A DNA stretch of 64,000 bases from Streptomyces sp. WMMC940. GTDB lineage: Bacteria; Actinomycetota; Actinomycetes; Streptomycetales; Streptomycetaceae. The notes under the pieces are model-generated. The model saw only the letters and a program-made list of their open reading frames with translations. It had not been told where the DNA came from and ran no database searches. Below are positions 57,330 to 64,000 of the stretch, piece by piece. Within the stretch, counting starts at the first letter, position 1. Each line of letters begins with the position of its first letter. The DNA is taken from contig NZ_JAPZBC010000001.1 of assembly GCF_027460265.1 (NCBI RefSeq), forward strand, positions 7,366,001-7,430,000, written 5' to 3'. Made by a program: the position numbers and the translations under genes.

Positions 57330-58013
57330 TCACCCCAGGACCGCGGCGAGCTCCGGGAGGTAGTCCGCCAGGAACCCCAGGTCGGTGGCCCGGCCGAAGT
57401 CCGGGTGGTCCCGGTGATCGGGCAGACGGGCCAGTTCCCTGCGGCCGAAGTACCCACTGGGGCCGGCGCCGCCGGGGCGGGCCGGATCGCCGTTCCAGGC
57501 GGGGTCGGCTGCCACCAGGGGCAGACATCGCTCGAAGAGCCGCTGGCAGATCCGCAGCCCGCGGCGCAGAACCAGGTGGAACGGCTCGTCGGGCCCGATC
57601 GGATAGCGATCGGCGGCAAGAACGGGGCCGGTGTCGATGCCCTCGTCCACCTGGTGGAGGGTCGCGGCGAACTCCCGCTCGCCGCGCAGCATCGCGTAGA
57701 CCAGGGCCACTTCCGGCAGCCCCCGGTAGGCGGGCAGCGGACCGTGGTGGACGTTGAGGACGCGCAGCCCGCTGGACAGCACCGGCGCACGGAAGACGTT
57801 CCGGTTGTTCAGCGACCAGACGACGCCGTCCGTGCTGGCGTCGACCAGTTCGGCCGCCATGGAGTTGACGTCCGCGACGGCACGGAAGGGAACATCGGGC
57901 CGAGTGGCGTTCGCAGCCGGGGGAGGCCCGCAGACCAGGTCCACCGGCAGGTCGCTGTCGAGGGTGTGCTGAACGGCGCGCCACAGGAGAGCGCCCTCTC
58001 CGACGAAGATCAC
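57330..58013 (-). CDS. lstF: Formyltransferase of the beta-lactone cluster (LstF-like)
   Basis: 227 residues, formyltransferase catalytic domain only. The Asn-His catalytic segment is LNVHHGPLPAYRGLP and the Asp-containing segment LHQVDEGIDTGPVL, as in methionyl-tRNA formyltransferases; the tRNA-binding C-terminal domain is missing. It should N-formylate the amino acid carried on or released from the NRPS, using formyltetrahydrofolate. GTG 58013 overlaps the NRPS gene stop (GTGA). In lipstatin biosynthesis the last gene, lstF, encodes this type of enzyme. Assignment depends on cluster context. Confidence 0.82.
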   Translation of the reverse strand: MIFVGEGALLWRAVQHTLDSDLPVDLVCGPPPAANATRPDVPFRAVADVNSMAAELVDASTDGVVWSLNNRNVFRAPVLSSGLRVLNVHHGPLPAYRGLPEVALVYAMLRGEREFAATLHQVDEGIDTGPVLAADRYPIGPDEPFHLVLRRGLRICQRLFERCLPLVAADPAWNGDPARPGGAGPSGYFGRRELARLPDHRDHPDFGRATDLGFLADYLPELAAVLG

Positions 58014-62241: not shown

Positions 62242-64000
62242 GCCGCCGCCCCCTTCCGCCTGCCGCCGCGCCGGCGCCACCAGGTCGCACCGAACAGCAT
62301 CGTCAGCGCGGCCGTCGCCCAGGGCCTTCGCCCGGTGGCCAGCTCCTGCTCCCTGCGCAGGGCGGACGGTATCTGGAGCGCATGGACGACGACGCTGAGG
62401 AAGGCGTCGATCCACCACAAGGCCGTCAGCGCCACGTGGTCCCAGGGCAGCAGCGGCCAGGTCGGCAGATAGGCCCAGCCGAGCAGCGGGACGGTGCGCA
62501 GCGCCCGGTCCGCGGCGGTCGGGCGGCGACTGCCGGTGAGCCGGTCCTCGGCCCAGCCGGCCAGCAGCTCCCGGCGGATCTTGGCGTTGTGGCGGATGTC
62601 CACCGGGAAGGCGGGGTGCGGCAGGAAGTCCTCGATTGCCTTGGTCACCGGGTTGTCGGCGCCCAGAGCGCGCAACTCTCGCTCGATCCGCGGCCAGTGC
62701 CCCGGACCTGTGCCCGGTTCGAGCTCCACGCACAGCACGGGTCGCTGCTCGCCATGCGGGCCGAAGCCCACCAGTGCGGTGCGTTTGACCTGCGGATGGG
62801 CGTTGAAGACGCCTTCGCATCGCACGGTGTGCAGGTCGCCGTTCGCCGTGCGGACACGGTGGCTCTTGCGTCCGCAGAACCAGATGCGGCCCTCGCCGTC
62901 GATCCATCCGACGTCACCCGTGCGGTGCCAGCGACGCCCGTCGTCCTGGATCTTGTGCTCGGCATCGGCCCCGGGTGAGCGGAAGTAGCGCGGGCTGACC
63001 GTCCGGCCGCTGACCACGATCTCGCCGATCTCACCTTCCGCGACGGGGAGCTCGGGCGTCCAGAGGGGTACCGGTCCGTCGCTGACCTCGATGGTGCGGA
63101 CCGTTGTGCCGGGTGCGGGCCACCCGACACAGACACCGAGGGCGGCGGCAGGGCCGTCGGCGCATCCGGCCAGTGCCTCCCTGCTCTCGACCAGCGCCAT
63201 CGGCAGGGCCTCGGTCGATCCGTAGGTGCTGAACACGTTCGCGTCGTCCGGCAGTACGGCACGCAGCGCTCTCATCAGCCCAGGGCTCACCGGGGCTCCG
63301 CCGGAGACGATCAGACGCAGTGACGGCACTCGGGCGCCGGATTCCCCCAGATGTTCCGAGAGCGGTCCCAGCAGGGCGGGCGAGGCGAACATGGCGTCCA
63401 CCCCGAAGCGCTGGATCGCGTCGGTGAGCAGCACCGGGTCGGCGGCGCCGACGCGGCCCATGTCCATCCTCGGCACCACCACCGTGCGGCCCGCCGCGAG
63501 GTCGAACACACCCATCAGCGGCATGGTGACCAGGGTGCTGGTCATGTCAGCGGTGAAGTGGCCGGCCTCGACGCCGTGCGCCATCCCCCGCAGCATGCCG
63601 ACGGTGATCTCGACCGGCTTGGCCGGACCCGTACTGCCGGTGGTGTAGCCGATCAGCGCGATGTCGTCCGGCCCGGACGCCTGCGGAGGCAGTTGCGGCT
63701 GGTCCGCGCCGAGGGCGGACAGCTGCTTGAGCCCGCTTCCCCGGGGCAGCGTGATCACGCTCTTCACTCCGGCGAAGGCACGCGGCCGAAGGCGCCGGAG
63801 CATGTGCGCGGACGGTACGCCGATGAAGGCCTGGACCCGCACCCGGCGGATGCAGTCCAGCATGCGGCCCAGTCCCATGCCGGGGTCGACCACCACGGGA
63901 ACCGCGCCTGTGTGCATCAGGGCGAGGACCAGGACGAGCAGATCGGCGCCGGGAGTGACCAGCAGGGCCGTACGGGTGCCACGGTCGATGCCCCGAGTCC
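62238..64000 (-). CDS. lstC: Beta-lactone synthetase, OleC/LstC-like (5' end beyond the window)
   Basis: 587 codons are present; the first ~40 residues lie outside. AMP-dependent ligase family: YTTGSTGPAKPVEI (P-loop), STYGSTEALPMALVES, WHRTGDVGWIDGEGRIWFCG then RKSHRVRTANGD, and C-terminal LCVELEPGTGPGHW. The WFCGRKSHRV segment and a C-terminal domain that ends in a hydrophobic stretch are typical of OleC, which makes a beta-lactone from a 3-hydroxy acid through acyl-AMP. Followed by OleD, NRPS and formyltransferase genes, all with 4-bp overlaps or 2-nt spacing, in the order of lstC-lstD-lstE-lstF. Confidence 0.88.
   Translation of the reverse strand, partial: TRGIDRGTRTALLVTPGADLLVLVLALMHTGAVPVVVDPGMGLGRMLDCIRRVRVQAFIGVPSAHMLRRLRPRAFAGVKSVITLPRGSGLKQLSALGADQPQLPPQASGPDDIALIGYTTGSTGPAKPVEITVGMLRGMAHGVEAGHFTADMTSTLVTMPLMGVFDLAAGRTVVVPRMDMGRVGAADPVLLTDAIQRFGVDAMFASPALLGPLSEHLGESGARVPSLRLIVSGGAPVSPGLMRALRAVLPDDANVFSTYGSTEALPMALVESREALAGCADGPAAALGVCVGWPAPGTTVRTIEVSDGPVPLWTPELPVAEGEIGEIVVSGRTVSPRYFRSPGADAEHKIQDDGRRWHRTGDVGWIDGEGRIWFCGRKSHRVRTANGDLHTVRCEGVFNAHPQVKRTALVGFGPHGEQRPVLCVELEPGTGPGHWPRIERELRALGADNPVTKAIEDFLPHPAFPVDIRHNAKIRRELLAGWAEDRLTGSRRPTAADRALRTVPLLGWAYLPTWPLLPWDHVALTALWWIDAFLSVVVHALQIPSALRREQELATGRRPWATAALTMLFGATWWRRRGGRRKGAAA

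What the first reader, a model, noticed from the sequence alone, without database searches (positions are those of the whole stretch)
57330..64000. Lipstatin-type beta-lactone biosynthetic operon
Seen: four tightly coupled minus-strand genes encode, in order, an OleC-like beta-lactone synthetase, an OleD-like reductase, a C-A-T NRPS and a formyltransferase. Established: the lipstatin operon of Streptomyces toxytricini is lstA-lstB (OleA-type), lstC, lstD, lstE (NRPS), lstF (formyltransferase). Inference: this strain makes a 3-hydroxy-beta-lactone esterified with an N-formyl amino acid (lipstatin, valilactone, panclicin or a new relative). The adenylation code I read does not match a standard Leu or Val code, so the amino acid may differ.
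Basis: partly seen in the sequence, partly recalled or inferred. Interest (0 to 1): 0.85.

Follow-up and report, generated by a model that had tools for sequence, protein, structure and literature searches.

The report
Lipstatin-like beta-lactone cluster, different amino acid
A Streptomyces chromosome carries a complete six-gene cluster of the type that makes lipstatin, the precursor of the anti-obesity drug orlistat, but its amino-acid-loading enzyme has a different binding pocket, so it probably attaches an amino acid other than lipstatin's leucine.

Summary
Residues reported as essential in S. toxytricini LstA (Cys, His, Asn) and LstB (Glu) are kept. The NRPS aligns with authentic LstE at 42-47% identity.

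Two refinements. The N-terminal "C" domain matches no Pfam or NCBIfam family, but its model folds as a condensation domain. The adenylation code is DLMGQGIVAK; LstE (leucine) reads DIFALGGVAK. The 48 closest listed relatives all have Gln or His at position 299, and 0 of 146 other listed family members do. The product is most likely an N-formyl-aminoacyl beta-lactone with an amino acid other than leucine; which one cannot be read.

Across relatives the amino-acid cassette is exchangeable: 5 of 27 clusters, all with an asparagine-like code, lack the formyltransferase and carry an acetyltransferase, and one of them has window-clade A-D genes. New variant of a known kind; no chemistry was tested.

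The parts
62238..64000 (-). LstC: OleC-like beta-lactone synthetase, 652 aa; its start lies outside the window (64196 if numbering is continued, L002:10196). Beyond it, outside the window, follow LstB-like (64196-65149, L002:10196-11149, 317 aa) and LstA-like (65146-66201, L002:11146-12201, 351 aa)
   Evidence: PRK09274 5.7e-167; olefin beta-lactone synthetase model 7.7e-140, below cut-off. LstB-like: ACP_syn_III_C 1.8e-6, Glu59 = LstB E60; LstA-like: ACP_syn_III 5.6e-9, C126/H269/N303 = LstA C128/H271/N305
61207..62241 (-). LstD: OleD-like 3-keto reductase (SDR), 344 aa, GTG start, overlaps LstC by 4 nt
   Evidence: 3Beta_HSD 2.4e-41; OleD model 1.7e-58, below cut-off
58010..61204 (-). LstE: NRPS C-A-T, 1064 aa
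   Evidence: AMP-binding 5e-73, PP-binding 1.1e-8; 42-47% identical to LstE of S. toxytricini
59987..61147 (-). N-terminal domain of LstE (about aa 20-406): condensation fold, HxxxD His142/Asp146
58409..59878 (-). Adenylation domain (about aa 443-932), pocket code DLMGQGIVAK
58100..58252 (-). Carrier (T) domain, about aa 985-1035, motif GGDS
   Evidence: PP-binding 1.1e-8, aa 988-1035; motif read
57330..58013 (-). LstF: formyltransferase, 227 aa, GTG start, overlaps LstE by 4 nt
   Evidence: Formyl_trans_N 5.4e-11

Best explanation
This is a complete lipstatin-type operon whose amino-acid module has diverged. LstA/LstB join two fatty acyl-CoAs head to head; LstD reduces the 3-keto group; LstC adenylates the carboxylate and closes the beta-lactone; the adenylation domain of the NRPS loads an alpha-amino acid on its carrier domain; the N-terminal condensation-fold domain passes it to a side-chain hydroxyl as an ester, which would explain why the NRPS has no thioesterase; LstF formylates its amino group. 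Shown: genes, order, catalytic residues, predicted fold of the C domain, pocket code. Inferred from the lipstatin pathway: the reaction sequence. Inferred from the code: the amino acid is not leucine.
For: All six genes in order with overlapping or 2-nt junctions. Published essential residues kept: LstA C/H/N and LstB E (over window plus 80 loci, Cys 80 of 81 with one gap, His, Asn and Glu 81 of 81). 42-47% identity to authentic LstE. Code DLMGQGIVAK against LstE DIFALGGVAK: 5 of 10 positions differ; Gln/His at 299 in 48 of 48 closest homologues and 0 of 146 others. LstF present in 22 of 27 named relatives with an adenylation domain, 6 of 6 window-type ones included.
Against: No chemistry. Adenylation codes can drift without a change of substrate, and the LstE-like group itself varies at position 322. 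The N-terminal domain has no sequence-family match, and its ester-forming role is inferred. Chain lengths cannot be read. Related strains' clusters carry plain 'lipstatin' labels in papers.
Confidence: 0.7

Rival explanations
1. It makes lipstatin itself or another N-formyl-leucine ester; the pocket has drifted but still takes leucine.
For: Same six genes and order; 42-47% identity to LstE; positions 235, 301, 330, 331 and 517 of the code are shared with LstE.
Against: 5 of 10 code positions differ, including a hydrophobic-to-polar change at 299 (Leu to Gln); that position is Gln or His in 48 of 48 relatives and in 0 of 146 others.
Confidence: 0.18
2. The operon is intact but silent, or its product is not a finished ester; the genes are kept for another lipid product.
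For: No expression data; no recognisable promoter or terminator (a scan unsuited to high-GC actinomycetes).
Against: No stop inside any of the six frames; the six genes are kept together in 9 non-duplicate window-type loci counting the window's own.
Confidence: 0.09
3. The first four genes belong to an olefin or plain dialkyl beta-lactone (nocardiolactone-like) pathway, and the NRPS and formyltransferase are unrelated neighbours.
For: LstA-D are OleA/C/D-type; 34 of 40 Nocardia loci have lst relatives and a free-standing C domain with no adenylation domain found.
Against: No OleB hydrolase among the six genes; overlapping junctions; NRPS and LstF follow A-D in relatives while the flanks differ.
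Confidence: 0.03

Closest known systems
Lipstatin operon lstA-F, Streptomyces toxytricini
   Same: Six genes; catalytic residues of LstA and LstB as reported in PMC12141560; NRPS 42-47% identical to LstE.
   Different: Adenylation code differs at 5 of 10 positions; NRPS is 1064 aa against 1581 in LstE; chain lengths unknown.
Panclicins and valilactone (N-formyl-Ala/Gly and, recalled, N-formyl-Val)
   Same: Expected enzymology: beta-lactone plus N-formyl amino acid (panclicins: PMC7449042 passage)
   Different: My searches listed no gene cluster for either, so codes cannot be compared
Asparagine-like relatives (S. sioyaensis L039, S. kronopolitis L040, S. inhibens L041, HNM0575 L042, Wenjunlia L069), candidate esterastin type
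   Same: LstA-D and a C-A-T NRPS
   Different: Code DLTKVGEIGK or DLTKIGEIGK; GNAT acetyltransferase and no LstF
Nocardia LstA-D loci (nocardiolactone-type clusters)
   Same: LstA-B-C-D relatives in order, followed by a homologue of the NRPS's N-terminal domain
   Different: That domain is a free-standing gene of about 395 aa; no adenylation domain or LstF found in the stretches held. That these are the published nocardiolactone clusters is my inference (PMC7413640 passage)

Membership tests
Lipstatin-type beta-lactone operon | Two OleA-type ketosynthase III genes side by side | tested here: met
   L002:10196-11149 and 11146-12201, ACP_syn_III families
Lipstatin-type beta-lactone operon | LstA catalytic triad Cys-His-Asn and LstB Glu60 | tested here: met
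   C126, H269, N303 and E59
Lipstatin-type beta-lactone operon | OleC-type synthetase and OleD-type reductase, no OleB | tested here: met
   Family matches, though the OleC and OleD equivalog models are matched below cut-off
Lipstatin-type beta-lactone operon | C-A-T NRPS homologous to LstE over its length | tested here: met
   aa 9-403 47%, 438-884 46%, 895-1064 42% identical to P0309
Lipstatin-type beta-lactone operon | Formyltransferase gene at the end of the operon | tested here: met
   57330-58013, Formyl_trans_N 5.4e-11
Lipstatin-type beta-lactone operon | Product is an N-formyl-aminoacyl beta-lactone | not testable with these tools
   Needs culture and LC-MS
Lipstatin (leucine) in the strict sense | Adenylation pocket code of LstE, DIFALGGVAK | tested here: not met
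   DLMGQGIVAK; differs at 236, 239, 278, 299, 322
NRPS condensation domain (N-terminal part of LstE) | Match to a condensation-domain sequence family | tested here: not met
   No Condensation match in Pfam or NCBIfam up to E 1
NRPS condensation domain (N-terminal part of LstE) | Condensation fold with HxxxD | tested here: met

The most novel reading that the evidence does not exclude
The window-type clade makes beta-lactones esterified with an amino acid not yet seen in this class, and the family is a natural mix-and-match platform: one fixed beta-lactone core (LstA-D) onto which whole cassettes (the entire C-A-T NRPS plus a formyl- or acetyltransferase) are swapped, with the condensation domain also existing as a free-standing ester-forming enzyme in Nocardia.
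Probability: 0.3. Interest if true: 0.65.

Novelty: new variant of a known kind. Interest (0 to 1): 0.48.

Why it matters
Lipstatin is the source of orlistat, and the amino acid tunes potency: alanine panclicins are reported two- to threefold weaker than glycine ones (PMC7449042, passage). A clade of 48 listed NRPS homologues with a pocket unlike LstE's, and relatives in which code and acyltransferase change together, give concrete clusters to match with products and natural evidence for which parts can be exchanged. It also names a candidate cluster type for esterastin. A review already says that LstA-LstB pairs are widespread and may serve various lipstatin-like compounds (PMC12141560), so diversity as such was expected.

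Tried and rejected
FmdA formamidase (55897-57147) and AmiS channel (55235-55858) beside the formyltransferase: I considered a link to N-formyl chemistry. Of eight flanking proteins tested against 96 loci, FmdA, AmiS and five others had no match and one (L002:14412-15077) matched in one locus, L067. The loci reach only about 3.5 kb past LstF and some are cut by contig ends, so this test is fair for FmdA and AmiS and weak for genes further out.

Assigning the amino acid from the code: abandoned. I had no reference table on hand and recall no match to DLMGQGIVAK.

S. toxytricini was not among the 80 loci kept of 205; its LstE came from the third protein search.

Promoter and terminator scan of L002 2900-12700 found nothing and no tRNA lies in L002; uninformative.

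Linking esterastin to a genome through papers: PMC10616362 annotates esterastin by mass spectrometry in one strain; the search of its text found neither lipstatin nor beta-lactone.

Full report
WHAT IS THERE. The window is G000:C1:7366001-7430000 of a 7.67-Mb assembly. Its right end cuts a gene; the adjoining DNA (L002) completes the picture. Six minus-strand genes follow one another: LstA-like (L002:11146-12201, 351 aa), LstB-like (L002:10196-11149, 317 aa), OleC-like (L002:8238-10196, 652 aa; window 62238-64000), OleD-like (61207-62241, 344 aa), NRPS (58010-61204, 1064 aa) and formyltransferase (57330-58013, 227 aa). A/B, C/D and E/F overlap by 4 nt, B/C by 1 nt, and D/E are 2 nt apart. Pfam families: ACP_syn_III and ACP_syn_III_C on A and B; AMP-binding on C; 3Beta_HSD and Epimerase on D; AMP-binding, AMP-binding_C and PP-binding on E; Formyl_trans_N on F. 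In NCBIfam, C and D match the olefin beta-lactone synthetase and 2-alkyl-3-oxoalkanoate reductase models strongly but below their equivalog cut-offs.

CATALYTIC RESIDUES. A review of the heterodimer (PMC12141560, section 5 read in full) gives LstA C128, H271 and N305 and LstB E60 for S. toxytricini. Here the corresponding residues are C126, H269, N303 and E59. Over 81 rows (window plus 80 loci) the Cys is kept in 80 (one gap), the His and Asn in 81 and the LstB Glu in 81.

COMPARISON WITH THE REAL LstE. The third protein search listed LstE of S. toxytricini (P0309). The window's NRPS aligns with it at 47% (aa 9-403), 46% (438-884) and 42% (895-1064). The ten pocket positions (GrsA numbering, recalled) were mapped by alignment. 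LstE reads DIFALGGVAK, the window DLMGQGIVAK; they differ at 236, 239, 278, 299 and 322. The mapping has an internal check: another group in the family reads DLTKVGEIGK, close to the recalled asparagine code, with Lys at 278 and Glu at 322 where expected. Of 194 homologues aligned (the 120 listed of 498 hits, plus 74 new among the 120 listed of 496), 104 are LstE-like (DIFA or DIIA), 48 window-like, 26 asparagine-like and 16 other. Position 299 is Gln (37) or His (11) in all 48 window-like proteins, which are also the 48 closest homologues (two of them partial), and in 0 of the other 146. These are listed hits, not the whole family.

A FAMILY OF EXCHANGEABLE CASSETTES. A genome scan with an LstB alignment found 205 relatives and kept 80. 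In 27 of the 80 an adenylation domain was recovered, and 22 of these have LstF: 6 of 6 window-like, 11 of 11 LstE-like, 3 of 3 Rhodococcus, Longimycelium, and 1 of 6 asparagine-like. The five without LstF (S. sioyaensis L039, S. kronopolitis L040, S. inhibens L041, HNM0575 L042, Wenjunlia tyrosinilytica L069) all have an asparagine-like code and a GNAT gene next to the NRPS; Pfam was run on three of the five GNATs and found Acetyltransf_1 in each. The sixth asparagine-like cluster (S. hygroscopicus ATCC 21589, L038) has LstF and no GNAT hit, so the pairing is not strict. Fisher's test on 5 of 6 against 0 of 21 gives 7e-5, but related clusters are not independent. The Wenjunlia GNAT does not match the others at E 1e-3, which suggests a separate acquisition. 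A GNAT fragment in L065 lies beside a C-domain fragment with no adenylation domain found and is outside the count.

CASSETTE SWAP. In a tree of LstA+B+D, Wenjunlia falls inside the window clade (support 1.0); by its NRPS it falls with the asparagine-like clusters, in the A-domain tree (0.884 with S. inhibens, 0.993 without) and in the C-domain tree (0.833 and 0.995) (FastTree local support). Its LstA-D are 69-81% identical to the window's, its NRPS 43%. The simplest reading is that the NRPS moved as a whole and the acyltransferase changed with it.

DISTRIBUTION AND BORDERS. Of 392 Streptomyces-group genomes searched (the window's genus), 17 have an LstB relative at E up to 1e-20; 5 of these, the window's own included, are window-type at 80% identity or more. 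G000 has one match. Among nine relatives, a rough gene caller of my own (which missed some lst genes) found nothing shared outside the six genes except one 47% pair (L024/L067); seven of eight window-side flanking proteins have no match in 96 loci and one matches in L067.

PUBLISHED STATE. Passages read: 'lipstatin' labels in strains PMC6424883 (its genome section in full), PMC8466323, PMC9405382, and in Nocardia PMC7413640. The lst operon paper and the Nocardia adenylate-enzyme paper are not held. Searches on esterastin, valilactone, panclicin, lipstatin with antiSMASH, lst gene names, lipstatin with adenylation domain or formyltransferase (15 of 25 listed) showed, in titles and abstract openings, no paper that assigns a cluster to esterastin, panclicin or valilactone; the library is partial and I read few of the papers. 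Esterastin as an N-acetyl-asparagine ester is recalled; the listing did not confirm it.

VERDICT. Shown: genes, order, residues, code, predicted fold, cassette exchange. Inferred: the reaction sequence, the ester-forming role of the C domain, formylation, the non-leucine amino acid. Not known: which amino acid, the chain lengths, whether the cluster is expressed.

Noticed in passing
L039, L040, L041, L042, L069: Relatives with an asparagine-like adenylation code, no LstF and a GNAT acetyltransferase beside the NRPS: candidate esterastin-type clusters.
   Followed up: partly
L069 (Wenjunlia tyrosinilytica), LstB at 9968 to NRPS end 17841: LstA-D 69-81% identical to the window's but an asparagine-like NRPS (43%), with an unrelated GNAT between LstD and NRPS: a natural cassette swap.
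   Followed up: yes
L078:13961-15148, L102:4981-6168, L105:14202-15389 and 31 other Nocardia loci; also L070:13720-15024 (Myxococcales MAG): The condensation-fold domain of LstE occurs as a free-standing ORF after LstD with no adenylation domain found and no Pfam match in the four tested; substrate unknown.
   Followed up: partly
L075:3760-5709 (7.1-kb contig of a MAG labelled Candidatus Lokiarchaeota): An LstA-LstB-like pair (40% and 32% identical) that keeps the LstA Cys-His-Asn and the LstB Glu. Misbinning not excluded.
   Followed up: partly
L071, L092, L114 (Rhodococcus) and L061 (Longimycelium): Further adenylation codes with LstF present: DMALIGSIAK, DMALVGSVVK, DMAMSGSIVK and DGHLAGVIVK; substrates unknown.
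   Followed up: no
window 55235-57147 (+): AmiS/UreI-type channel and formamidase FmdA beside the formyltransferase gene; no match near any of 96 related loci.
   Followed up: yes
L002:10196-11149, aa 92-96: LstB proteins have N-G-A-C-G where LstA has the catalytic N-A-C; the Cys at position 95 varies (C in 41 of 81 rows), as expected of a non-nucleophilic partner.
   Followed up: partly
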